From Acidimicrobiales bacterium (GTDB taxonomy: Bacteria; Actinomycetota; Acidimicrobiia; Acidimicrobiales; SKKL01): a DNA stretch of 64,000 nt. The notes under the pieces were generated by a model that worked only from the letters and a program-made list of their open reading frames with translations, was not told the origin of the DNA and did not search any database. A program made the position numbers and the translations under genes. Below are positions 3,354 through 51,199 of this stretch, piece by piece; position 1 is the stretch's first letter; the number at the start of each line of letters is the position of its first letter. Where the stretch lies: contig JAXHLR010000004.1 in assembly GCA_034521975.1 (NCBI GenBank), forward strand, positions 272,165-336,164, read 5' to 3'.

Positions 3354-4676
3354 GTGGCACCTTCAGCATCCGATGGTCACCGGTGGACGAACTGGGCCGG
3401 CAACCAGGTCTGTGCCCCCGCCGCGGTCGACCACCCCGCCACCGAGGAGGACCTGGTCGCCAGCATCCGGCGGGCGGCCGCCGACGGTCAGCGGGTCAAG
3501 GTCGTGGGATCCGGCCACTCCTTCACCGGCACCGCGCTCACCGACGGTCGCCAGATCGTGCTCGACCGCTATCACCGCCTGCTGTCGGTCGATCCCAACA
3601 GCGGTCTCGTCACCGTCCAGGCCGGCATCACACTTCGCCGCCTCAACGCCGAGCTCGCCCAGCACGGCCTGGCGATGCCCAACCTCGGCGACGTCGCCTA
3701 CCAGACCATCTCCGGCGCTCTGGCCACCGCCACCCACGGCACCGGCATCTCCCACGGAAACCTCGCCACCCAGATCCGGGGCATGCGCCTGATCTCCGGC
3801 GACGGCTCGGTGGTGTCGTGCTCGGCCGACGAGGAACCCGAGGTGTTCGCCGCCGCCCGCGTCGGCCTCGGAGCGCTCGGGGTCGTCTCCACGGTCACCC
3901 TCCAGTGCGTGCCCGCCTTCGACCTCCACGCCGTCGAGGCACCCGAACGCATCGATCCCCTCCTCGCCGACATCGACACCCACGTCGAGGGCAACGACCA
4001 CTTCGAGCTCTACTGGGTGCCCCACACCCGTTGGGCACTCACCAAGCGCAACAACCGCACCGACCTGCCCCGGTCCCGCCGCCCGGTGTGGCGCGAGCTC
4101 TACGAGGACGTCGTCGTGTCGAACCTGGCGTTCGGTGCGCTGTGCCGGCTCGGCCGCCTGTCGCCCCAGGCCATCCCCCGCCTCATGCGGACCCTGCCCA
4201 GCACCGGTCCGACCGACTACGTGGATCGCAGCGACCGGGTGTTCACCAGTCCCCGTCTGGTCCGGTTCTACGAGATGGAGTACGCCGTGCCACGCGAAGC
4301 GGGACCCGAGGCCCTGAACCGGGTGCGTGACCTCGTGGGTCGCAGCGGGCTGCGTCTCAGCTTCCCCGTCGAGGTCCGCTTCGTCGCCGGTGACGACATC
4401 CCCCTGAGCCCCGCATTCGGACGCGAGACCTGCTACATCGCCGTGCACGTCTACCAGGGGACGGACTTCCACCAGTACTTCAGCGGGGTCGAGTCGATCA
4501 TGGATGACTACGACGGTCGCCCCCACTGGGGCAAGCTCCACTTCCAGACCGCCGAGACCCTGGCGCCGCGGTACCCCGAGTGGTCGCGCGTCCAGGCGGT
4601 GCGGGCCCGGCTCGACCCCGACGGCCGGTTCGCGAACGAGTACCTCGACCGGGTGCTCGGCCCGGTGAGGGCCTGA
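3354..4676 (+). CDS. FAD-linked sugar-lactone oxidase (ALO/gulonolactone oxidase family)
   Basis: 440 residues from GTG 3354. The N-terminal PCMH-type FAD domain contains VVGSGHSFTGTALTDG, with His56 placed as the residue that carries covalent FAD in this family. The C-terminal half is the D-arabinono-1,4-lactone oxidase domain, ending HWGKLHFQ, WSRVQAVRARLDPDGRFANE. Expected reaction: oxidation of an aldonolactone such as L-gulono- or D-arabinono-lactone. It diverges from the methyltransferase at 3260 across a 93-base spacer and is followed 4 bases later by the PLP enzyme, so the two probably share a transcript. Exact sugar specificity is not readable. Confidence 0.88.
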   Translation: MAPSASDGHRWTNWAGNQVCAPAAVDHPATEEDLVASIRRAAADGQRVKVVGSGHSFTGTALTDGRQIVLDRYHRLLSVDPNSGLVTVQAGITLRRLNAELAQHGLAMPNLGDVAYQTISGALATATHGTGISHGNLATQIRGMRLISGDGSVVSCSADEEPEVFAAARVGLGALGVVSTVTLQCVPAFDLHAVEAPERIDPLLADIDTHVEGNDHFELYWVPHTRWALTKRNNRTDLPRSRRPVWRELYEDVVVSNLAFGALCRLGRLSPQAIPRLMRTLPSTGPTDYVDRSDRVFTSPRLVRFYEMEYAVPREAGPEALNRVRDLVGRSGLRLSFPVEVRFVAGDDIPLSPAFGRETCYIAVHVYQGTDFHQYFSGVESIMDDYDGRPHWGKLHFQTAETLAPRYPEWSRVQAVRARLDPDGRFANEYLDRVLGPVRA

Positions 4677-40139: not shown

Positions 40140-41075
40140 TCAGTCGGGTAGATAGAAGTAGTGCACGCGGGAGTGGCCACCCTCCAGCTCCCAGGTCTCG
40201 ACGATCAGCTCCGCGTCCTGCTTGTGCAGCGCGTAGAACGCGGTGGCGACATCACCGCTCCACGCATCCTCGAGCGTCACCTCCCAGTCGGATGCAGCGA
40301 ACGTCTCTTCGAGTGCCGCCTTCGTGTCACCGGCGTCGCCACCCTCGAAGGTCGCGCCGAAGAACCCCTCGGTGTCGATGCCGGCCTCTCGCGCGAAGCG
40401 CTCAGTCGGTGAGTAGGAGTCCTCGATGTCCGCGGCGCTCGTGAGGACGAGCCCCTCCGGCACAGGCGCATCGGCAGGGAACGAGGCCGGAAGGACGTCC
40501 TGACCGACTCCACGCAGGCTCCCGGCCAGTTGGGCGTCGGGGAGGTACAGCACGCACGCCTTCGTCCGTGCACCGTCGTCCCATTCCTCCTCTGTGGGCT
40601 GCACGCGGAAGCCGCCCAGTGCACTCGGCGAGCCGTCGATCCCGAGGAACTCGTTGAACGCGGGGACACAGACCTCCTGGAAGAGATCGTCCCAGACGTC
40701 CTCATCGGGGTAGGCGGCGTCGGCTCCCTCCTCGAGTGTGTGGACGGTGACGACCTCCCTGTCGTGGGGTGGTTCGCAGTCGACGATCAGCGGTGGACGT
40801 GAGTAGTCGGGATCGCCGCCATCGTCGAACCGGTGGTCGAAGCAGTCACCGTCGGAGAGGTATCCGGTGAAACTCGCCGGCGTCGCGTCGGGGTTCGAGG
40901 AGCCATCCTGCGACCCCGTCGTTTCGGACGATCCCGTGTCGGCGTCCTCGGCATCGGCGTCGACCGGTGCCGAGCCATCGGGCGAGGGGCTTGCTGCGGT
41001 GTCATCGTCCCCACCGCCGCAGCCAGCCAGGAGCACCACCACCAGCGCGCCAACGCCAAGCAACCTTCGGGTCAT
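40140..41075 (-). CDS. Septum-formation-domain lipoprotein
   Basis: 311 residues from ATG 41075. Lipoprotein signal: MTRRLLGVGALVVVLLAGC, with lipid-modified Cys19. A Ser/Asp/Thr-rich linker is followed by a Septum_form-like region (DCFDHRFDD, VDCEPPHDREVVTV, VCVPAFNEFLG) with paired Cys, and a C-terminal domain ending VHYFYLPD. Predicted to be surface-anchored. Confidence 0.78.
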   Translation of the reverse strand: MTRRLLGVGALVVVLLAGCGGGDDDTAASPSPDGSAPVDADAEDADTGSSETTGSQDGSSNPDATPASFTGYLSDGDCFDHRFDDGGDPDYSRPPLIVDCEPPHDREVVTVHTLEEGADAAYPDEDVWDDLFQEVCVPAFNEFLGIDGSPSALGGFRVQPTEEEWDDGARTKACVLYLPDAQLAGSLRGVGQDVLPASFPADAPVPEGLVLTSAADIEDSYSPTERFAREAGIDTEGFFGATFEGGDAGDTKAALEETFAASDWEVTLEDAWSGDVATAFYALHKQDAELIVETWELEGGHSRVHYFYLPD

Positions 41076-41353
41076 CGATCCACCTCCGGCGTCGCTGACG
41101 TCCGAGTGTGGCATTTCGTCGCGGCCATTTCCGCGAATCGTGCGCTCGGCTATGGGGCGGCTCCTCCCTTCACCCACCGAATGTCGACGCGGCCGTTTCG
41201 CACTCAGGACCGACATCGGGGCTGCGCAGGCGCCCCACTCAGGAGATGAACCACGCTCGAGGTACCTGCGCTTTGCCTGGTCGTCAGTCGTGATCTGGCG
41301 CGGACGGGGCCCACCGAGGGTCCGGTGATCGCACCCCCAGCTCCTCGGCCACC
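41076..41353. other. Gene-free stretch
   Basis: 278 bp upstream of the septum lipoprotein and downstream of the next lipoprotein on the same strand. Mixed sequence of lower GC; I see no hairpin, repeat or credible ORF. Confidence 0.5.
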
Positions 41354-42331
41354 TCAGCCGGTGGGCGTGAGCTCGAACTCCAGCTCGACGAGGGGATCGG
41401 TGAGGCCCGGACCCTGAGGGCTGATGTGCAGGATGTAGGTATCCTCGCCCAGCTCGTCGGGATCGAAGACGACACCATCGAGCTCGAAGCTCACCATGAC
41501 CCCGCGGAGCGTCTCGCCGCCGGAGATGATCTCGTTCGGTCCCCCTTCTGGCGAGATCTGCGTCCCGTCGGGTAGGACGAGGCGGAAGGAGTCACCCATC
41601 ACGTTCGCGTCGTACCTCGAGTCGACCAGCATCGTCACGTCGACGGTCACGAGCAGGATCGGGGCATCGACCGGCTGCTGGGCCACCGTCGAAATGCGGC
41701 TGAGGGGGTCGTGGGCGAACAGTTCGAGACCGGTGATCGCGGCTTCGATCTGGCCGTCGTCCACCATCTGCTCCGGCGCCTCGAGGGTGATCGGAGCGGC
41801 GGGAACCGTGGCGTCGGGGTCGCTCAGGGGAACCATCGCCTGGATCTGGCGCTCCGTACCCGCGTACAGGGCGGCGTCGTCGAAGGCGAACGACTCGTCG
41901 ACCATGAACTCGGCGGTCAACCGACCGCTCGCGCCCGGTCGGACGACGTCACCGAACGACGAGGTCATCGCCGATCTGTCACCCCAGCGAAGCTCGAACT
42001 CGTCGGCTGGGAAGACGCCATCGCTCTCCCGAAGGTTCTCGGTCACCAGGTCGACCTCGACGGTCGACCCATCACCGACGTCGTCGGCGCCGAGGCGAGC
42101 CTCGACGATGTCGACCCGGAACCCCGCGTAGTAGATCTCGGCCCCGACCTCGACCACCTCGGGCTCGAGCGCCGGTTCATCCTCGGGAGCGATCGTGGTC
42201 GCCTCCGAGGTCATCGTGGTGGTGACCTGTGACGCATCGTCGTCGCTACCGCAGGCCACCACGGCCAAGCCGAGAGCAGCGACAGCAGCGACTGCGAACA
42301 TGCGGTGAACGCGCGACAGCAAGGAAACCAT
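41354..42331 (-). CDS. Secreted lipoprotein, immunoglobulin-like domains possible
   Basis: 325 residues. Signal peptide and lipobox GLAVVAC (Cys27). A Thr/Glu-rich linker is followed by two beta-rich regions (EIYYAGFRVDIVEARLG and QIEAAITGLELFAHDPL), resembling DUF4352-type extracellular domains. No catalytic motif seen. A second Met at residue 11 is an alternative start. Confidence 0.7.
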   Translation of the reverse strand: MVSLLSRVHRMFAVAAVAALGLAVVACGSDDDASQVTTTMTSEATTIAPEDEPALEPEVVEVGAEIYYAGFRVDIVEARLGADDVGDGSTVEVDLVTENLRESDGVFPADEFELRWGDRSAMTSSFGDVVRPGASGRLTAEFMVDESFAFDDAALYAGTERQIQAMVPLSDPDATVPAAPITLEAPEQMVDDGQIEAAITGLELFAHDPLSRISTVAQQPVDAPILLVTVDVTMLVDSRYDANVMGDSFRLVLPDGTQISPEGGPNEIISGGETLRGVMVSFELDGVVFDPDELGEDTYILHISPQGPGLTDPLVELEFELTPTG

Positions 42332-42757
42332 GGCACTTCCTTTCCTCCGTCTCCCCAGAATCGTCCTACTTCCGGTGGCGGTGGCCCAGGGCCGAAGGTC
42401 ACCATCGCCATGCGGACCGGAACTCAGGGACCTCCCTGACCGTCCTTCAACTGGGAAATGTCACCGGGTGAGGTTTTCCATCAGCTGTGAACGGTCATCC
42501 AATGTCCATCCAACGGCGAGAAGCGTCCGGAACACCCCGGGGTACACCCGGCCCAGGTCCTGAGTACAGGTGTCCGTCAACCCGGGGTAGGTCCATCACA
42601 CCCGCACCGTGATCGACGGCCACCGGCGCGACCCGAGGACCGCTACCGAATGCGTCGACTCACCGCCGACGAGATGGCAAGGCTCTGCCGGCTCGCCAGG
42701 CTAGGCCCGCCCGAGCACCAGCAGGTGCGCCATCTCACAAGAACCAGACTCTGCGCG
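42332..42757. other. Gene-free stretch holding element boundary
   Basis: 426 bp. Contains the inverted-repeat end GGGAAATGTCACC (42453-42465), the direct repeat (42464-42487) and GC palindromes such as ACCCCGGGGT. A 99-residue frame at 42650-42949 on the plus strand is antisense to the RT 3' end and has no features, so I do not call it. Confidence 0.6.
42464..42487 (+). repeat. Left direct repeat flanking the RT locus
   Basis: 24 bp, matching 44425-44448 at about 21 positions; the core TTTTCCATCAGCTG is identical. In the right copy, this core contains the stop codon and last two codons of nrdJ. Confidence 0.85.
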
Positions 42758-44284
42758 CTAGCCGGACGTAACGAGCGTGACCGCAGGTGCGATCTCCCGA
42801 TACTGATTCGCGAGTGGCTTCAGGCGACGTTGAGCAACGTCACGAGGCTGCGACGCATAGCCGGAGACTGCGGCCCGACGGTACCCGACATGGGAGAGCG
42901 TATCGACGAGGTGATCGGCATCGTTCGGCTTCCAGGCGCGGCTCGATGACCACGCCTTGACTGCCCAAGCACCGACCGAAGGCTGACGGTGCGTAGCTTG
43001 CTCCCACGCGAAATCATGCAGGCGCTGCCCGTTCTGCTTGTCGACACGGTATTCAGCCAGGGCCCGAAATGCGTGTAGCTGGCCAGCTGAGGTGTGCTTA
43101 TCGGGGGTGCGGCCCACCGCCCGGTCCATCAGCCATGTGACGTCGATCGCCTCTCGGGCGTCGCGGTCAGCTGCGATCGCCACTAGGTAGTCACCGACGG
43201 AGCGGGGCTCCCGGTCGAACCAGTGGGGGTTCGCCTGGAGAAACTCGAGAGCTCCCGGGTCCTTGTGAATACGGAACCGCCCGAGCACGGACCGAAGGTG
43301 TGCGGCGGGAAGCTGCCCGTCAAGGCCGAGCGACTGCATCATCGTCTCGGCCTCGAGCAGATCGCAGAGTCCGTCAGTGCCCTCGACGGCGAATAGTGAA
43401 TCGCGAGACGGGTCGAGCAGCTTCTGCTCTGCGACGGGCGCCTTCAGCAGCATGCCGGTCTTGCGGCCATTGAGATGCAAGCCGACCCCACCCAAGAGCT
43501 CGCCGATCATTCCGTGCAACTCGGGCCACAAGGCGGGGTCGGTGAGGAACACGTCAAGGTCGTCAGTCCATCGCACGAACTTCCGGCCCTGGGCTACTAG
43601 TTCTTGATCAACTGCACCTACGAACAGGTTCGCAATCGGCCCTGAACCCTCGAAACCGATCGGCAGTCCCGTTCCTCCCGGGAACAGCACGGCGAGCAGC
43701 TGCACGATCACCTCAACCGCACCGGCGGGTGCACCCGCTTGGAGGAGCAGCTCAGCAGCGTGATGATGACCGCAGGACGGGAAGAAGTTCTCGATGTCGA
43801 AGAAGCCGACTGCCGCGGTCCGATCATCGTCGTAGTAAGCGCGCTGAAGCTCCCGCCGACGTCGGTGCTGCTCGACGAAGGCGGCTGAGAACCATCCTGG
43901 ACCGGTGGTTCCGATCAGCCCGTTGAGAACATGGCGACTATCGGTCGCAGCCTTGATCGCAGCGGAGCACCGGCCAACATAGGACCGCAACCCCAGCTCA
44001 TCGTAGGGATCAAGGACCGTCAGCCCCCGCGTGGCCGAACCGTCCGATTTCGGAAGCGGGAACCTCTCGGTGCGCTGAAGAGCAACGCCGCCCTCAAGCT
44101 GCCCCCGGACGAGCTCGTAAGTCGCGCCGGGGTCGCAGTAAAGATCCTCAAAGCCAAGGACGTCGGGTACGTCACGGGCTTGGGCGAAGCGCCGCGCTGC
44201 GGCAACACCCTCTCGGATGTCGGATCGGAGTGGTCGGAGACCACCGGGGTCAGAATTGAAGGTGTTCGATGGGTCAGCCCTCAC
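42758..44284 (-). CDS. Reverse transcriptase of an unassigned, defence-like group
   Basis: 508 residues from GTG 44284. RT blocks: an early FPLPKSDGSATRGLTVLDPYDELGLRS region (75-101), motif A FFDIENFF with Asp163, motif B GTGLPIGFEGSGPIANLF (204-221), motif C RWTDDLDVF with Asp241-Asp242 (Trp instead of the usual Tyr/Phe), then GLHLNGRKT. A 230-residue, mostly helical C-terminal extension has no maturase, HNH or integrase motif. It is a single gene with no accompanying intron. This matches stand-alone RTs of the Abi/DRT kind that act against phage, but the subgroup cannot be fixed by eye. Confidence 0.85.
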   Translation of the reverse strand: MRADPSNTFNSDPGGLRPLRSDIREGVAAARRFAQARDVPDVLGFEDLYCDPGATYELVRGQLEGGVALQRTERFPLPKSDGSATRGLTVLDPYDELGLRSYVGRCSAAIKAATDSRHVLNGLIGTTGPGWFSAAFVEQHRRRRELQRAYYDDDRTAAVGFFDIENFFPSCGHHHAAELLLQAGAPAGAVEVIVQLLAVLFPGGTGLPIGFEGSGPIANLFVGAVDQELVAQGRKFVRWTDDLDVFLTDPALWPELHGMIGELLGGVGLHLNGRKTGMLLKAPVAEQKLLDPSRDSLFAVEGTDGLCDLLEAETMMQSLGLDGQLPAAHLRSVLGRFRIHKDPGALEFLQANPHWFDREPRSVGDYLVAIAADRDAREAIDVTWLMDRAVGRTPDKHTSAGQLHAFRALAEYRVDKQNGQRLHDFAWEQATHRQPSVGAWAVKAWSSSRAWKPNDADHLVDTLSHVGYRRAAVSGYASQPRDVAQRRLKPLANQYREIAPAVTLVTSG

Positions 44285-44372
44285 ACGTCGTGCGGTCGGT
44301 TGTCGGCTCGGTAGGCACGGATTCGCCTGGGAACGCAGCTGGGCCGGGTGCTCGCGATAGTTAGCAGTTGCG

Positions 44373-44434
44373 CCTTTCCCTGGCGCGAAGTCAGGCCTTC
44401 CCTGGCCGCGAAATCAGGGGTTTCCCTGGTGACA
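44373..44434 (-). repeat. 23-bp tandem repeats resembling IS21-type ends
   Basis: Two full units and a partial third with exact 23-bp spacing (44373, 44396, 44419), each containing TTCCCTGG and, in the full units, CGCGAA. The last ends in GGTGACA. Multiple short internal repeats behind a TG...CA terminus are characteristic of IS21-family ends. They lie between the RT start and nrdJ stop. No transposase gene is present. Confidence 0.75.
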
Positions 44435-44448
44435 TTTTCCATCAGCTG
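44425..44448 (+). repeat. Right direct repeat, overlapping nrdJ 3' end
   Basis: Partner of 42464-42487. Includes the TCA (minus-strand TGA) stop of nrdJ at 44442-44444. Its GGTGACATTTTCC portion (44428-44440) is also an inverted copy, 12 of 13 bases, of GGGAAATGTCACC at 42453. Confidence 0.85.
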
Positions 44449-47400
44449 CAGCCGCTGGTGTTGCCGCAGCTGGGGCAGGCGTGGCACGAGCCGGCCCGCT
44501 GCATCTGGACACCGCACTGCATGCACATCGGCGCGTCGCTCGACTGCTGCATCGGGGTCGAACCCGACTCCCGCTGCATCTGGGCCGACAGCTCCGAGGC
44601 CGAGGGGATCGACTTGGGATCGGGTTGGACATCGGAACCGGTGCTGGTCTCGGTGGTCGACTCCTCGACCCCGGGCAGCGTGGGCTGGGTGCGCTCTTCG
44701 ATGGTGAAGATCCCGAGCTCGGCCCTCTCCTCGTAGCTGAGGTACTCGATCGCCAGCTTGCGGAACAGGTAGTCCATGAGGCTGGAGGCGATCCGCACAT
44801 CGGGATCGTCGGTCATGCCCGCAGGCTCGAAGCGCATGCCGGTGAAGGCTTCGATGAAACCGCGCAGAGGCACGCCGTACTGCAGGCCGTGGCTGAGCGA
44901 GATGGCGAAGGCGTCCATGATCCCCGCCAGGGTCGAACCCTGCTTGGACACCCGAACGAAGATCTCGCCGGGGCGACCGTCGGTGTACTCGCCGACGGTG
45001 ACGAAGCCCTTGCAGTCGGCCACCCGAAACTCGAAGGTCTTGGAGGAGCGAGTGCGGGGCAGGCGCTCGCGCACCGGCACCTCGACGACCCGCTCGACCA
45101 CCTTCTCGACGACCTCGGCCGGCGACTCGGCCACGTCCTTCTTCACCGTGGACAACGGCTGGGAGTTCTTGCAGTTGTCGCGGTAGATGGCGACGGCCTT
45201 GACCCCGAGCTTCCACGCCTCGATGTGGAGCGCCTCGACGTCTTCGATCGTGGCCTCCTCGGGCAGGTTCACGGTGTTGTGGTTCATGATGCCGTTGCCG
45301 ACGAAGGCATGGGTCGCCGGCACCGACAGGTCGTACACCTCACGCAGTCCAGCGTCGGCGACCGACTCCACGGGGCTGAAGTGCAGCCCGTCGTCGACGA
45401 TCTGGTGCAGCCAGGAGGGCACGGCGTCTCCGGCAACCGCGATGACACGTTCGAGGGTCTCGCGGGTGACCCGCCTGGTGCGGCGATCGCACAGGTACGC
45501 GAACTCTGCCCGCACCCCGTAGCCGTTGCGTCCGCTCTTTCCCCTCGGCAGCATCTCGTAGAGGTCCCGTGGGGCGATCGGCACCACATCGGAGGTCGCA
45601 TGTCGGCTGCCGAACGTGCGAGCGCTGAGCAGCGCAGCGGCGGCTGCCTTGTCCGGCTCGAGGAACGGCACGAGCTCGATCAACCGCTGGGCATCGCCGC
45701 CGGTGACGTACACCTCGCCGTAGTGCTTGTCGTAGTCGCGGTTGTACTTCTCGACTCGACCGCTCCGGATCCCCAGGTTCGTGAGCACGGCCTGGAGGTC
45801 GTCGAGCAGGCCCGCCGAGTCGAGGCAGATCGCCCACTTCGGAGCGGTCGACACGGTGGTGTAGGCGTCGAGCCACAGCCCCTGCAGGAAGGCCAGAACG
45901 TGGTGGCGAGGCGAACGCAACACCGCATCGGGGATGCGCTTCTCACGTGCACGGTGTCCCAAGCCGAGGTGATCGAGGAACTCGACCACGGTCTTGGATG
46001 CCACCGTCACCGAGGGGCAGCGGACACCGTCATCGACGACTCGAGCCTCGAGTCCGAACAGCGAACGCCACGCCGACACCACGCGGTCGCGAACCGCCGG
46101 CACCGAGTTGGTGACGTGAACGGTGTAGGTGCTGGCGGTGACGTGTCCTTCCGACGCGATCGCCCCCAGCAGGAACGCCAGTTCGGAGCTCATCTCATCG
46201 GGGATCGTCACCTTGGTCTGGGAGCCATATGGGGCCGACGGCTCGAAGTCATCGAAGCGAGCAGGCAGAGGCGACCACATCTGTGAGCCGTACTGCTGGG
46301 CCACGAGATCTGTCGGCTCGATCTCGTCGAGCCGCTTCCAGGCGATCCCCTGCTCGCTGCCAACGAGCAGCCGGTGGTTGGGCGTGCCGGTGATGGTGTG
46401 GCCCGACCGCAGCGTGACGGTGATCGTGGGCCGCAGACCGCCGTAGTAGAAGGCGTCGGTCTTCTGTGGACCGTCGATCGAAGCAACCTCGACGATCTCG
46501 TCACGGAAGCTGTCGGGCGCCTCGCTCTGGTGAAGCGAACCGATGCGGACGAGACCGTCAGCGGTCGGCACCAACGTGTCGCCCACCACGCACTTGCTGA
46601 TCGCGCCGCTGATGAAGGGCTGGACCGCGCCCATCATGCGCACGTGGCCGTTGTGGTGGATGGCGTTGTCGCCCATCGAGCAGGCGAACACCTCGAGGTG
46701 CTCGGCCTTGAGCTGTGGGCAACCGAGGATGGTCTTGTTCTCCTCGAGGTAGGCCATGATGTCGGCCTGCTCGTCGGCGGTGTAGCCGAGGTTGCGCAGC
46801 GCCCGGGGCACCGTCTGGTTGATGATCGACATGGTGCCGCCGCCGACCAGCTTCTTCATCTTGAACAAGCTGAGGTCGGGCTCGACCCCGGTGGTGTCAC
46901 AGTCCATCATCAGCCCGATGGTGTTGTGGCTGATGAACCCGTTGGCCACATAGGTGACGTTCTCGGGCACCGAGATGTCGTAGGTGAACTCCTCGTCGCC
47001 CAGCTCGGCAGATTCGACGGTGTCGAAGAAGAATCCGAGCAGGTGGCCGAGTTCGGCATCGCCGCTGAGCTCGTGGAGCTCGGTGGCCAGTCGACGGGTG
47101 ATGGTGCCCGAACGGTTCAACTCCATGAGCGCCACCCTGCGGTTGCGACCGTTGGTCGGCGCCACCCGGTCGATCAGCTCGCGACTGGCCGGGATGTGGT
47201 CGTAGCGTGCGGCCTGGGGAGCGTCGCTGGTGTCGACCCTGGCCGACTTGGAGCCTCCGATGAAGCCGACCTCGTCGAGCCACCGCTGGTTGACCGCACG
47301 GTTGAGCAGGCGCACGACCGACAGGTCCGAGCCCCGGCCGCTGGTCTGGTGCGACAACGTGGTGACGAACCCGAGGGCCAGCATGAGGCTCTGGACCTCG

Positions 47401-50400
47401 GTGGCGAAGTCGGCGTTGGCCGTGGTCCACGACGGGTAGCCAACCGTGACGGTGCCATCGGCCTCGAACAGACCCCGCAAGAACGCCCGATACACCTCGG
47501 CGTCGTTGCTGTGGAGCACCGCATCGGGGATGTGGGGGGCATACCCCTTGCCCGAGTGGCCTTGGTGGGGAGCGTGCTTGGCGAAACCACATGCCTCCCA
47601 CCACTCGACGAGGCGGACCGAGTGGAACGCGACCTCGGTGTAGCCCTCCTTGGGCGAGGTGCGGGCACCGATGCCGAACAGCTCCTTGCCGAGATGCTCG
47701 AGGCGCTCGACTACGTCGAAGTCGCCGGCGGCGACACAGAGCCGCAGGCCACGGGAGTGCAGTGAGCCGTCGCCCATGAAGTACCCGACCAGCTCGGCGA
47801 GCTCGGCCGACATCTCACGGGGCACCCGCACGTGGTGCTCGCCCGCCCAGTAGGACTCCGAGATGGGCGGCAGGTTGACGGCCTGGGGCTCTCCGACGAG
47901 CGAGTCGAGTGCCAGCGGAACCTGGTCGCCGGGACGCACGTCGGCGAAGTGCCGCCACACCCAGTCTCCCGACTCGTCGACGACCTTGATGCGGTGCTGG
48001 GTGGTGCCCGAGATGCGATAGCCGCGGCGGGTGCGCACATCGACGACCGGCTCGAGCCCGTTGATGTAGAACTTGGTGGCCTCACGCACGCCTTCGTCGG
48101 TGGCGACGTCGACGTCGAGGTCCTGCCACTGCTGACCATCGGTGTCGCCGAGGGAGCGCAGCCGGACCAGGCCACGCGAGGTGGGGATCAGCGAGCCACC
48201 GACCAGACATCCGGTCGGTGCAAGCACACTGGCCTGGGAGTTGCGGACACCGTGGTCGGCGCCGAGCTCGCAGGCCTCGTCCCATGCCCGCTGGGCGGCC
48301 GACAACAGGTCGGCGGGCACCAGCTCCTCGTCGATCTCCGAGGCTGCCTCGCGGTGCATCTCGAGCACCCGCAGCATGGGCTCGGCGTTCTCCTCGTAGC
48401 CGGCGAAGGGACCCATGCGAGCCGCGGTGCGGGCCGAGGTGGCATAGGCGTGGCCGGTCATCAGCGAGGTGATCGCCGCGGCCGTGGCCCGGCCGCCGTC
48501 GGAGTCGTAGCCATAGCCCAGCGCCATGAGCAGGGCACCGAGGTTGGCGTAGCCGAGGCCGAGCTGGCGGAACTTGCGGGAGTTGTCGCCGATGGGCTCG
48601 GTCGGGTAGTCGGCCCGGCCGACGAGGATCTCCTGGGCGGTGAAGACGACCTCGACCGCGGCCTTGAAGCCCTCGACGTCGAACACGCCGCCCTCGGGGC
48701 TGAACTTCAACAGGTTGAGGCTGGCCAGGTTGCACGCCGAGTTGTCGATGTGCATGTACTCCGAGCAGTTGCGCACCACCACGCCGTTCACGACATAGGA
48801 GTGGTTGCGGGGCTCGGACAGGTTGTAGGTGGTCTCGACGCCGTCGTCGGTGCGGCTGGCAAGACGAGTGGTGGTGTCGGTGTCGTAGAACCGGTGCTCG
48901 CCCACCATGGCGGCCAGCGCCTCGGCCTTGGCCGGCGCGTCGAAGCCGATCTGTGAGGCGAACGCCTGAAGGTCCTCCACCTGGAGCTCGTTGGAACCGA
49001 TGCGACTCGAGACGCCGAAGGTGGTGAGCAGGTGCTGGACGTCCTGCAGCAACGGCTCGGACGTGGAACCGAGCCCGACGTAGCGGCTCTTGTCGCCGTC
49101 GTAGACGCAACCGTCGGCGTCGAAGAGGCCACGGAGGAACGAGGCCACGACATCGGCGGGCGCTTCGTTGACCGACCACGGCACCCGCTTGGTGTGAGCC
49201 GGCCCGTCGGAGACGCCGAGGGCCTCGAGGAACCGGGCCACGATGCGCCGCGACTGACGGAGCTGCACCGTGCCGTTGGCCTGGGGCGACGGCGTGGGCT
49301 CGCGCCCGTCGTTGATGTCGGTGATCAGGGCCCGGTGCCGGGGCAGGGCGTGCTTGCGGTCGTCGTCGCTGCCATAGACGGTCGAGGCGACATCGCCCGA
49401 GAGGCAGCCGTCACCGACGAGCCATCCGAGGTAGTGGGCGAAGTCGTCGGTCCACTTCTCGGGCAGGTTGAGCGCACTGGACCAGTCGCCGGTGCTGGCA
49501 TAGGCGAGCGCATCGGTGGCCACCGGCAGCGAGCGGCTGGCCGAGATGGCCGGCGCCGGGAGGTTGAGGGTGGCGATGCGGTCGTCGGCGGTGAGCTCTG
49601 ACGCGGGGACATAGCCACGATTGCGGGTGAAGATCTTGTGGCCGGCGGTGCAGCGCAGCTCCATGCCGTTGGAGAACCGCAGCTTCACGATCTCGTTGAC
49701 GCCGGTGACCATGAAGGCGTCGGGAGTGGTGATCTCCATGGCCTCGGCCGGGGCGTCGGGGTTGGTGGCGTCGTGGGTGTAGACGCCGAAGGTCTCGCCG
49801 TCGTTCACCCGGTCGATGAGGTCGACGAAGCTGATGAGGCCCTTGTCGGTGTGCACCAGCGAGTCGCCGGTGAAGCACGGGTTGGATCCGTTGATGCGGT
49901 CGGTGTTGGCCGCGGTGTGCCAGCGGTTGATGGTGGTGTCGAACTGCATGCCCGGATCGGCGCACTCCCATGCCGCCTGGGAGATGTCGCGGAACAGGTC
50001 GCGGGCCCGGACCGTCTTGACGATGCTGTCGTCGGTGACCGCCCGCAGGTGCCAGTCGGCGTCGTCGACGACGGCCTGCATGAACTCGTCGGTGACCCGA
50101 ATGGAGTTGTTGGCGTTCTGGTACTGCACCGAGGCCATGTCGGCGCCGTCGAGGCTCATGTCGAACCCGGCCTCGGCCAGGGCCCGGATCTTGCGTTCCT
50201 CGCGGGCCTTGACCCAGATGAACTCCTCGATGTCGGGGTGACCGGCGTCGAGGATCACCATCTTGGCGGCGCGACGGGTCTTGCCGCCGGACTTGATGGT
50301 GCCGGCCGAGGCGTCGGCGCCGCGCATGAAGCTGACCGGGCCCGACGCGGTGCCACCGCCCTTGAGGTGCTCCTTGGACGAGCGGATCTTGGACAGGTTG

Positions 50401-50936
50401 ATGCCCGCGCCCGAGCCGCCCTTGAAGATGGTGCCCTCCTCGACGTACCAGTTGAGGATCGAGTCCATCGTGTCGTCGACCGACAGGATGAAGCACGCTG
50501 AGGCTTGCTGGGGCACGCCCTCGACGCCGATGTTGAACCACACCGGCGAGTTGAACGCCGCCTTCTGGGTGACCACCAGGTGCTTGAGCTCGGCCCGGAA
50601 GATCTCGGCCTCGCGATCGTCGAGGAAGTAGCCGCCCTCGATGCCCCACTGGGTGATGGTGTCGACCACGCGGTCGATGACCTGCTTGAGCGACGACTCG
50701 CGCTCGGGGGAACCGGGGGTGCCCCGGAAGTACTTCTGGGTGACGATGTTGGTGGCATTGACCGACCAGGTGGTGGGGAACTCGACCCCGAGCTGCTCGA
50801 AGGCGACCGACCCGTCCTGGTAGTTGGTGATGCGACTGTCTCGTTGCTCCCACTCGACCTCGTCGTAGGGGTGCACGCCCTCGGTGGTGAAGTAACGGCG
50901 GATGCCGATGCCGGTCTGCTCCGGGGCAAGTGCCAT
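44442..50936 (-). CDS. nrdJ: Class II (B12-dependent) ribonucleotide reductase with three inteins
   Basis: 2164 residues from ATG 50936 (GAGGAG upstream), about 926 after splicing of three inteins. Exteins: 1-353, 724-909, 1339-1448, 1888-2164. Functional sites: first redox Cys148 (ASACFILS); NPC-SEY, where intein 1 sits directly before the thiyl-radical Cys724; APTG-TIGLMM, the phosphate loop split by intein 2; and ISK-TVNLP split by intein 3. The C-terminus has CMQCGV...CHACPSCGNTSGC, a redox-relay/zinc tail. Reduces ribonucleotides using adenosylcobalamin without oxygen. NrdR boxes lie in its leader. Confidence 0.96.
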   Translation of the reverse strand: MALAPEQTGIGIRRYFTTEGVHPYDEVEWEQRDSRITNYQDGSVAFEQLGVEFPTTWSVNATNIVTQKYFRGTPGSPERESSLKQVIDRVVDTITQWGIEGGYFLDDREAEIFRAELKHLVVTQKAAFNSPVWFNIGVEGVPQQASACFILSVDDTMDSILNWYVEEGTIFKGGSGAGINLSKIRSSKEHLKGGGTASGPVSFMRGADASAGTIKSGGKTRRAAKMVILDAGHPDIEEFIWVKAREERKIRALAEAGFDMSLDGADMASVQYQNANNSIRVTDEFMQAVVDDADWHLRAVTDDSIVKTVRARDLFRDISQAAWECADPGMQFDTTINRWHTAANTDRINGSNPCFTGDSLVHTDKGLISFVDLIDRVNDGETFGVYTHDATNPDAPAEAMEITTPDAFMVTGVNEIVKLRFSNGMELRCTAGHKIFTRNRGYVPASELTADDRIATLNLPAPAISASRSLPVATDALAYASTGDWSSALNLPEKWTDDFAHYLGWLVGDGCLSGDVASTVYGSDDDRKHALPRHRALITDINDGREPTPSPQANGTVQLRQSRRIVARFLEALGVSDGPAHTKRVPWSVNEAPADVVASFLRGLFDADGCVYDGDKSRYVGLGSTSEPLLQDVQHLLTTFGVSSRIGSNELQVEDLQAFASQIGFDAPAKAEALAAMVGEHRFYDTDTTTRLASRTDDGVETTYNLSEPRNHSYVVNGVVVRNCSEYMHIDNSACNLASLNLLKFSPEGGVFDVEGFKAAVEVVFTAQEILVGRADYPTEPIGDNSRKFRQLGLGYANLGALLMALGYGYDSDGGRATAAAITSLMTGHAYATSARTAARMGPFAGYEENAEPMLRVLEMHREAASEIDEELVPADLLSAAQRAWDEACELGADHGVRNSQASVLAPTGCLVGGSLIPTSRGLVRLRSLGDTDGQQWQDLDVDVATDEGVREATKFYINGLEPVVDVRTRRGYRISGTTQHRIKVVDESGDWVWRHFADVRPGDQVPLALDSLVGEPQAVNLPPISESYWAGEHHVRVPREMSAELAELVGYFMGDGSLHSRGLRLCVAAGDFDVVERLEHLGKELFGIGARTSPKEGYTEVAFHSVRLVEWWEACGFAKHAPHQGHSGKGYAPHIPDAVLHSNDAEVYRAFLRGLFEADGTVTVGYPSWTTANADFATEVQSLMLALGFVTTLSHQTSGRGSDLSVVRLLNRAVNQRWLDEVGFIGGSKSARVDTSDAPQAARYDHIPASRELIDRVAPTNGRNRRVALMELNRSGTITRRLATELHELSGDAELGHLLGFFFDTVESAELGDEEFTYDISVPENVTYVANGFISHNTIGLMMDCDTTGVEPDLSLFKMKKLVGGGTMSIINQTVPRALRNLGYTADEQADIMAYLEENKTILGCPQLKAEHLEVFACSMGDNAIHHNGHVRMMGAVQPFISGAISKCVVGDTLVPTADGLVRIGSLHQSEAPDSFRDEIVEVASIDGPQKTDAFYYGGLRPTITVTLRSGHTITGTPNHRLLVGSEQGIAWKRLDEIEPTDLVAQQYGSQMWSPLPARFDDFEPSAPYGSQTKVTIPDEMSSELAFLLGAIASEGHVTASTYTVHVTNSVPAVRDRVVSAWRSLFGLEARVVDDGVRCPSVTVASKTVVEFLDHLGLGHRAREKRIPDAVLRSPRHHVLAFLQGLWLDAYTTVSTAPKWAICLDSAGLLDDLQAVLTNLGIRSGRVEKYNRDYDKHYGEVYVTGGDAQRLIELVPFLEPDKAAAAALLSARTFGSRHATSDVVPIAPRDLYEMLPRGKSGRNGYGVRAEFAYLCDRRTRRVTRETLERVIAVAGDAVPSWLHQIVDDGLHFSPVESVADAGLREVYDLSVPATHAFVGNGIMNHNTVNLPEEATIEDVEALHIEAWKLGVKAVAIYRDNCKNSQPLSTVKKDVAESPAEVVEKVVERVVEVPVRERLPRTRSSKTFEFRVADCKGFVTVGEYTDGRPGEIFVRVSKQGSTLAGIMDAFAISLSHGLQYGVPLRGFIEAFTGMRFEPAGMTDDPDVRIASSLMDYLFRKLAIEYLSYEERAELGIFTIEERTQPTLPGVEESTTETSTGSDVQPDPKSIPSASELSAQMQRESGSTPMQQSSDAPMCMQCGVQMQRAGSCHACPSCGNTSGCS
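45276..46592 (-). mobile_element. NrdJ intein 3 (439 aa)
   Basis: Residues 1449-1887 of the precursor, between SGAISK and TVNLPEE. Block A starts CVVGDTLVPT, block B has TPNH, and the end is VGNGIMNHN followed by Thr. LAGLIDADG-type endonuclease: first motif LLGAIASEGH acceptable; second motif FLQGLWLDAYT lacks the expected catalytic acidic residue. Splicing residues are intact but the endonuclease is probably dead. Confidence 0.93.
46923..48209 (-). mobile_element. NrdJ intein 2 (429 aa)
   Basis: Residues 910-1338, splitting APTG from TIGLMMDCD. Block A CLVGGSLIPT, block B TTQH, end FISHN then Thr: canonical residues. Endonuclease motifs VGYFMGDGSL and FLRGLFEADGT are intact, so homing could be active. 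Confidence 0.94.
48768..49877 (-). mobile_element. NrdJ intein 1 (370 aa)
   Basis: Residues 354-723, between GSNP and the catalytic Cys724. Block A CFTGDSLVHT, block B TAGH, end VNGVVVRN then Cys. The penultimate residue is Arg, where His is normal. Endonuclease motifs YLGWLVGDGCL and FLRGLFDADGC are intact. Confidence 0.94.
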
Positions 50937-51033
50937 GCGATGAGCTCCTCGAGAGGTGGTGGCCAGGCGGTCTGGCCGGGGCCGTTGATGGGTCTGGGAT
51001 GGGTCGGGCGCAACGCTGCGAGACCCGCTGCAA

Positions 51034-51049
51034 ACACGAGATGTTGTGT
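51034..51049 (-). promoter_or_regulatory. NrdR box, proximal
   Basis: ACACGAGATGTTGTGT, a near-perfect 16-bp NrdR palindrome (ACAC-N8-GTGT with central AT), about 98 bases before nrdJ. Confidence 0.85.
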
Positions 51050-51076
51050 GATCCCCCACGCCGCCGGGGCCCGTCA

Positions 51077-51092
51077 CCACAAGATGTTGGGT
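51077..51092 (-). promoter_or_regulatory. NrdR box, distal
   Basis: CCACAAGATGTTGGGT, a weaker copy of the NrdR palindrome, 43 bp (four helical turns) from the proximal box. Paired sites on one face of the helix are typical for NrdR, whose gene is at 57251. Confidence 0.75.
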
Positions 51093-51107
51093 CCGAGGCG
51101 TCTGACA

Positions 51108-51137
51108 ATTACACCATCGTAATTCCACCGCTGTCAA
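51108..51137 (-). promoter_or_regulatory. nrdJ promoter
   Basis: Minus strand TTGACA (51137-51132), 18-bp spacer, TGTAAT (51113-51108): a strong sigma-70-type promoter. The NrdR boxes lie just downstream of the -10, so bound NrdR would block initiation or early elongation. I looked for a cobalamin riboswitch in the leader and did not see one. Confidence 0.75.
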
Positions 51138-51199
51138 CGGATTGATCGAAGATCTCGGTGACCAGGCCGGTGGCGCACCCCTCACCCTATGGACCCCTC

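What the first reader, a model, noticed from the sequence alone, without database searches (positions are those of the whole stretch)
42758..44284. Stand-alone reverse transcriptase, candidate anti-phage (DRT/Abi-like) system
The protein has RT motifs A (Asp163), B and C, but motif C reads W-T-D-D instead of Y/F-x-D-D. A 230-residue helical C-terminus replaces the maturase and endonuclease parts of intron RTs. There is no intron, no second gene, and it sits alone between housekeeping genes, bounded by repeats. Stand-alone RTs of this build (AbiA/AbiK/unknown groups) defend against phage. The assignment to that class is inference.
Basis: partly seen in the sequence, partly recalled or inferred. 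Interest (0 to 1): 0.85.

Follow-up and report, generated by a model that had tools for sequence, protein, structure and literature searches.

The report
Unclassified anti-phage-type reverse transcriptase beside nrdJ
This is an intact stand-alone bacterial reverse transcriptase, probably an anti-phage gene that makes DNA without copying a template; it belongs to a small, unnamed family that in three different bacterial families sits directly behind the gene for the enzyme that makes DNA building blocks.

Summary
In detail: 42758-44284(-) is an intact 508-aa reverse transcriptase (RT) gene with catalytic Asp163, Asp241 and Asp242 and a C-terminal domain predicted as an alpha-solenoid. It is not an intron, DGR or retron RT: a tree with group II/DGR RTs is rejected (p 0.010), as is one with class 2 DRTs (p 0.033); grouping with Abi/DRT4-type class 1 RTs is not rejected. 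It belongs to a new clade (95/96 support) of about ten RTs, all from its own order (Acidimicrobiales by record titles). They are patchy (about 2% of genomes), only 20-31% identical to it, and fit no PADLOC group (at most 112 bits, against 235-537 for true members). Most relatives lie beside defence genes (DndB, Wadjet, DUF2290-helicase, PDC-S11). The W-T-D-D motif is common in this part of the RT tree. No conserved RNA or partner gene was seen. New here: in three families the RT lies directly downstream of, and co-directional with, the ribonucleotide reductase gene nrdJ, whose flank otherwise varies. An imperfect 24-nt repeat brackets the window's RT and its GC3 is low, so it looks acquired. 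Most likely it works like Abi/DRT4 enzymes (untemplated DNA synthesis on infection). Defence and mechanism are inferred.

The parts
42758..44284 (-). Stand-alone reverse transcriptase gene, 508 aa, GTG start
   Evidence: GC3 0.715 against 0.90 in nrdJ
43430..44077 (-). RT (fingers/palm) domain, about residues 70-285
43796..43798 (-). Motif A catalytic Asp163
   Evidence: Invariant in 9 full-length sequences
43643..43669 (-). Motif B GLPIGFEGS (P-I/V-G in place of P-Q-G), residues 206-214
   Evidence: DRT4-like GIPIG and Drt3b GIVIG at the same place, UG15 GVPIG
43559..43570 (-). Motif C W-T-D-D with catalytic Asp241 and Asp242
42761..43363 (-). C-terminal alpha-solenoid domain, about residues 308-508
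   Evidence: AlphaFold2 pLDDT 88.9; Foldseek hits are armadillo/alphaRep solenoids, E 0.02-0.1
44442..51185 (-). nrdJ, class II (B12-dependent) ribonucleotide reductase with inteins; upstream co-directional neighbour
   Evidence: NCBIfam PRK06556 1353 bits, intein domains
44285..44441 (-). 157-bp nrdJ-RT gap; no unusual RNA folding (z +0.56)
44425..44448 (.). Left copy of the 24-nt imperfect direct repeat, overlapping the nrdJ stop codon
42464..42487 (.). Right copy of the 24-nt imperfect direct repeat, beyond the RT gene
44376..44418 (.). 23-nt tandem repeat, 1.9 copies, in the nrdJ-RT gap
42332..42757 (-). Region between the RT stop and the next gene; no unusual RNA folding in 42480-42760 (z -0.84)

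Best explanation
A single-gene UG/Abi-type reverse transcriptase of a not yet named subgroup, acquired horizontally and inserted directly behind nrdJ, that most likely defends against phage. Shown here: an intact RT with the three catalytic aspartates, selected in its relatives; a predicted alpha-solenoid C-terminus; separation from group II, DGR and class 2 RTs; patchy distribution; defence-gene neighbours of homologues. Inferred: the RT and solenoid lobes form the C-shaped, probably oligomeric enzyme known from AbiK and DRT4, the solenoid taking the place of a template; on infection it makes DNA without a nucleic-acid template, probably primed on itself, and that DNA or the enzyme-DNA adduct stops phage multiplication by abortive infection. 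The site behind nrdJ is more likely a recurrent landing site, or a favourable expression site, than a shared pathway.
For: Clade of 9 with 95/96 support, separate from group II/DGR (96/99); AU tests reject joining with group II/DGR (p 0.010) and class 2 (p 0.033) but not class 1 (p 0.24; 0.43 with the sister group). C-terminus modelled as an alpha-solenoid; whole-model Foldseek best hits are DRT6, UG15, DRT4, AbiA, then AbiK and Abi-P2 among group II RTs. Motif B lacks the Gln of P-Q-G, as in DRT4-like and Drt3b. Neighbours of homologues: DndB in L049/L050, DUF2290 plus helicase in L051, PDC-S11 and Wadjet JetB/JetC in L048, RmrA-like in L088. Patchy: full-length in 8 of 397 order genomes, 1 of 4 in its own family, 1 of 37 in that of G666. 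Low GC3. dN/dS below 0.4 in relatives. Known class 1 enzymes: helical domain replaces the template, protein-primed untemplated synthesis (PMC9508834; PMC13174585).
Against: No activity or phage data. The family is not inside the clade of known class 1 RTs; the deeper branches are unresolved. No invariant tyrosine to serve as primer. The solenoid match is only by shape (E at best 0.02, and no Abi or DRT chain among the best 50), and hhalign finds no sequence link to other UG C-termini. The window copy itself has no recognised defence neighbour. P-I/V-G also occurs in DGR RTs.
Confidence: 0.6

Rival explanations
1. Same defence role, but RNA-templated as in class 2 DRTs: an undetected noncoding RNA next to the gene is copied repeatedly.
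For: Class 2 DRTs need adjacent ncRNAs that are hard to see by sequence (PMC12632851, PMC12483538); 426 bp downstream and 157 bp upstream are free.
Against: Grouping with class 2 rejected (p 0.033); no unusual folding on either side; no shared flanking block in common among L048-L051 beyond the coding ends; P-I/V-G instead of P-Q-G.
Confidence: 0.13
2. The RT works together with the ribonucleotide reductase: co-transcription behind nrdJ couples it to dNTP supply or lets it sense dNTP pools.
For: Co-directional nrdJ-RT adjacency in three families: window (157 bp), L085 (83 bp), L054. Phage nrdA/nrdB mutants escape DRT9, so RNR activity matters for a related defence (PMC12483538).
Against: Most homologues are elsewhere; the gap sequences are unrelated; most nrdJ-bearing genomes lack the RT; the L054 case holds only the last codons of an nrdJ at a contig end, and that genome has another nrdJ.
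Confidence: 0.13
3. A non-defensive RT, for example in DNA repair like group II-like 4 RTs, or another domesticated role.
For: The window copy sits among ordinary genes; G2L4 RT appears among structural hits.
Against: Patchy, fast-diverging, foreign composition, defence neighbours of homologues; outside group II.
Confidence: 0.1
4. The RT is a selfish mobile cassette that targets the nrdJ 3' end, the 24-nt repeats being its insertion scars.
For: 24-nt direct repeats at the nrdJ stop and beyond the RT; three nrdJ locations.
Against: No such repeats at L085 or L054; no integrase or intron RNA; other homologues at unrelated sites.
Confidence: 0.04

Closest known systems
DRT4 / DRT6 (UG15 / UG12), single-gene class 1 DRTs
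   Same: One gene, RT plus helical C-terminus, about 500 aa, P-I-G motif B in DRT4; among the best whole-model Foldseek hits
   Different: Outside the clade of the DRT4-like RT; weak or no score to their profiles; no shown activity
AbiK / AbiA / Abi-P2
   Same: RT lobe plus alpha-solenoid lobe, no intron parts
   Different: AbiK and Abi-P2 fall in a separate clade; no conserved priming tyrosine found
PADLOC RT_UG23, Drt8, RT_UG22, RT_UG32
   Same: Best profile matches over the RT domain; UG23 match reaches residue 375
   Different: 60 bits for this protein and at most 112 for relatives, against 235-537 for true members of PADLOC DRT groups
Short RTs of family f73 (L020-L025) and L029
   Same: Sister group, 97/95; W-x-D-D and P-I/V-G
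   Different: f73 proteins are about 230-310 aa and lack the C-terminal domain
DRT9 (class 2)
   Same: RT defence in which RNR and dNTP supply matter (PMC12483538)
   Different: Needs an ncRNA and has P-Q-G; grouping rejected

Membership tests
UG/Abi (DRT) reverse transcriptases | RT domain lies with UG RTs, outside group II and DGR RTs | tested here: met
   (no retron reference in the tree); PADLOC best hits are DRT/UG
UG/Abi (DRT) reverse transcriptases | Association with defence loci | tested here: met
   For homologues, not for the window copy:
UG/Abi (DRT) reverse transcriptases | RT-dependent phage protection | not testable with these tools
   Needs plaque assays with an active-site mutant
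Class 1 UG (AbiK, Abi-P2, Drt3b, DRT4) | C-terminal alpha-helical repeat (HEAT-like) domain | tested here: met
   By predicted fold only:
Class 1 UG (AbiK, Abi-P2, Drt3b, DRT4) | RT domain in the class 1 clade | tested here: inconclusive
   Known class 1 form their own clade without it, but joining is not rejected, p 0.24-0.43
Class 1 UG (AbiK, Abi-P2, Drt3b, DRT4) | Untemplated, protein-primed DNA synthesis | not testable with these tools
   No invariant Tyr
Named PADLOC groups (Drt8, UG22, UG23, UG32) | Full-length profile score comparable to true members | tested here: not met
   60-112 bits against 235-537
Class 2 UG (DRT2, DRT9, DRT10) | Clade membership and ncRNA template | tested here: not met
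   Clade with Drt3a/Drt9 rejected, p 0.033; no structured RNA signal
Class 3 UG (DRT1) | Nitrilase or phosphohydrolase domain | tested here: not met
   No such domain in Pfam or model
Group II intron RT | Intron RNA, maturase profile, clade | tested here: not met
   No Rfam intron; TIGR04416 24.9 bits against cut-off 300; p 0.010 for group II plus DGR
DGR RT | Clade and template/variable repeat | tested here: not met
   (with group II); no repeat of that form in 42330-44480
Retron RT | msr-msd RNA and retron RT profile | tested here: not met
   No Rfam match; best NCBIfam retron score 28.1 against cut-off 235

The most novel reading that the evidence does not exclude
A new UG subgroup whose members repeatedly settle in the nrdJ transcription unit because the RT is functionally tied to ribonucleotide reductase: host dNTP supply, or its disturbance by phage, is the trigger or fuel for untemplated DNA synthesis.
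Probability: 0.13. Interest if true: 0.78.

Novelty: new variant of a known kind. Interest (0 to 1): 0.52.

Why it matters
Single-gene DRTs are being found to make DNA in ways no other polymerase does. This clade is not resolved into the studied class 1 core, yet keeps the solenoid architecture and the P-I/V-G motif, so testing it would show how far untemplated synthesis reaches. The nrdJ linkage, if confirmed, gives a direct way to ask whether dNTP supply controls such a defence; phage RNR mutants already escape DRT9 (PMC12483538).

Tried and rejected
Single-protein scans of genome contigs and viral contigs found no relative; viral scans with alignments gave none or only distant RTs, the two examined being DGR-like; no relative in plasmids or phages for the window protein. 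Rfam gave only sub-threshold chance hits. RNA folding on both sides was ordinary. Flanking repeats at other homologous loci were not above shuffles, apart from L050 slightly. hhalign of the C-terminal profile against other UG C-termini gave nothing convincing. Whether nrdJ-linked RTs form one clade is undecided (p 0.23). nrdJ downstream regions share no gene between families except this RT, apart from one marginal match. A first ORF script misread locus strands and was redone.

Full report
Observation. The ORF 42758-44284(-) is intact, 508 aa, with a GTG start and no other in-frame start upstream. It matches RVT_1 at E 3.3e-6 (27.4 bits, cut-off 29.6) and many PADLOC DRT/UG profiles, best Drt8 and UG22 at 6e-17. 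It is the only RVT_1 match in the 3.3-Mb genome. Asp163, Asp241 and Asp242, with 24 other residues, are invariant among nine full-length sequences, the window's included.

Family. Searches of the genus and family found no second copy. In 397 genomes of the order, 8 hold full-length homologues, the window genome included, and G099 holds two full-length copies and a third, truncated one. They are 20-29% identical to the window protein over the alignment and up to 31% in pairwise BLAST. In 396 genomes of the phylum no full-length member was found outside the order. Two members carry public names: bacterium isolate APA_bin_18 and an uncultured Acidimicrobiales bacterium, which is the basis for naming the order. 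The gene is under purifying selection in the close members, dN/dS 0.24-0.38 where dS is not saturated and 0.06-0.14 where it is.

What it is not. In a tree with AbiK (pSRQ800), an Abi-P2-type phage protein, Drt3b, a DRT4-like RT, Drt8, UG22, UG33, UG21, Drt9, Drt3a, group II and DGR-like RTs, the family is one clade (95/96) with a sister group of short RTs (97/95). Group II RTs were identified by TIGR04416; the DGR-like ones by their LPIG/LPLG...SQ motif. Holding the family with group II/DGR is rejected (p 0.010), with class 2 rejected (p 0.033), with class 1 not rejected (p 0.24, or 0.43 including the sister group). The known class 1 RTs form a clade of their own (100/97). Retron RTs were not in the tree; the best retron profile match is far below its cut-off.

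Named groups. True members of PADLOC groups found on the way score 235-537 bits (L013 UG33 425, L012 Drt8 457, L070 Drt9 537, L040 UG21 444, L041 UG22 312, L011 UG22 235), whereas this family scores at most 112 and the window protein 60. I therefore do not file it under a named group.

Architecture. The whole model has mean pLDDT 74.9 and its best PDB matches are DRT6, UG15, DRT4 and AbiA, followed by group II RTs, AbiK and Abi-P2, all at low TM-scores near 0.3-0.4. The C-terminal 209 residues modelled alone reach pLDDT 88.9, 14 helices, and resemble armadillo and alphaRep solenoids, at weak E-values. In AbiK and Abi-P2 the helical domains share shape but no sequence, that of AbiK resembles HEAT repeats, and they take the place of the template strand (PMC9508834). 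Class 1 UG RTs are described as RT plus HEAT-like repeat domain with untemplated synthesis (PMC13174585). Motif B is P-I/V-G rather than P-Q-G, as in UG15/DRT4-like and Drt3b but also in DGR RTs. No tyrosine is invariant, so the priming residue cannot be named.

Neighbourhoods. L049 and L050: DndB directly upstream. L051: DUF2290 plus helicase. L048: PDC-S11 upstream, Wadjet JetB and JetC downstream. L088: RmrA-like protein. L053: HmaB fragment and ISL3 transposase. No gene accompanies the RT throughout, which fits a single-gene system. No flanking block outside the coding ends is common to the four close loci, and the window's intergenic RNA folds no better than shuffles.

nrdJ. The window RT starts 157 bp behind the stop codon of nrdJ, same strand. 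In G666 (L085) the RT starts 83 bp behind nrdJ. In G033 (L054) the contig begins with the last 17 codons or so of an nrdJ (GSCHACPSCGSTSGCS, stop at 4047), followed by the RT within about 115 bp. That genome holds another nrdJ with a different 3' end on contig C2, so contamination or a second copy is possible. The three genomes belong to three families. nrdJ is about 77% identical in DNA between the window and L085, while the RTs are 30% identical. Downstream of about 27 nrdJ genes of the order, genes are shared only between close relatives, except for this RT and one marginal match (E 9e-5). Three of nine or so distinct RT loci at one gene is far from chance: with about 3,500 genes per genome, two further loci behind the same gene would be expected by luck at roughly 1 in 400,000 (my estimate). 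Whether this is a landing site, a favoured expression site, old inheritance or a functional tie is open; the clade test is undecided (p 0.23). In DRT9, phage nrdA/nrdB mutations give escape (PMC12483538), which makes a functional tie worth testing.

Arrival. GC3 of the RT is 0.715 against 0.90 for nrdJ and 0.76-0.95 for other coding-like ORFs of the window. The 24-nt imperfect repeat CAGCTGATGGAAAA(TG/CC)TCACC(A/C)GG lies across the nrdJ stop and again 270 bp after the RT stop; none of 400 shuffles equals it, and it is the best second match in the whole genome. It is not seen at L085 or L054, so I treat it as a possible insertion scar only.

Mechanism. Shown: an intact RT of UG kind with a predicted solenoid C-terminus, selected and defence-linked relatives, patchy spread. 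Inferred from named enzymes (AbiK, DRT4, DRT1 and DRT9 papers): oligomer formation, protein priming, untemplated DNA synthesis and abortive infection. My confidence is about 0.9 for UG-type RT, 0.75 for defence, 0.55-0.6 for untemplated synthesis.

Noticed in passing
window 44442-51185: nrdJ carries intein insertions: one 2247-aa frame with two intein N-terminal and two C-terminal signatures in NCBIfam; three inserts by eye.
   Followed up: no
L020-L037 (family f73 of the phylum): Short stand-alone RTs (about 230-310 aa, no C-terminal domain) occur in many genomes of one family, sometimes twice per genome; they are the sister group of the clade studied here.
   Followed up: partly
L054 3930-4100 and L165: Genome G033 has two different nrdJ 3' ends, one directly before the RT at a contig end: second copy, duplicated fragment or contaminant contig.
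   Followed up: partly
L009, L011, L063, L073: Long RTs of about 680-705 aa; L011 is a UG22 member (235 bits) whose RT domain starts near residue 180, and the others cluster with it in the tree.
   Followed up: no
L048 3321-10293: Wadjet genes JetB and JetC about 1-8 kb beyond the RT.
   Followed up: no
window 44376-44418: 23-nt tandem repeat (TTCCCTGGCCGCGAAATCAGGCC) between nrdJ and the RT, function unknown.
   Followed up: partly
window 49408-49463: Sub-threshold CRISPR-DR20 match inside nrdJ (E 0.075), probably chance.
   Followed up: no
window 40140-42331: Two ORFs (40140-41216 and 41354-42331, both -) with signal-like N-termini and no family match; the second is the RT's downstream neighbour.
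   Followed up: no
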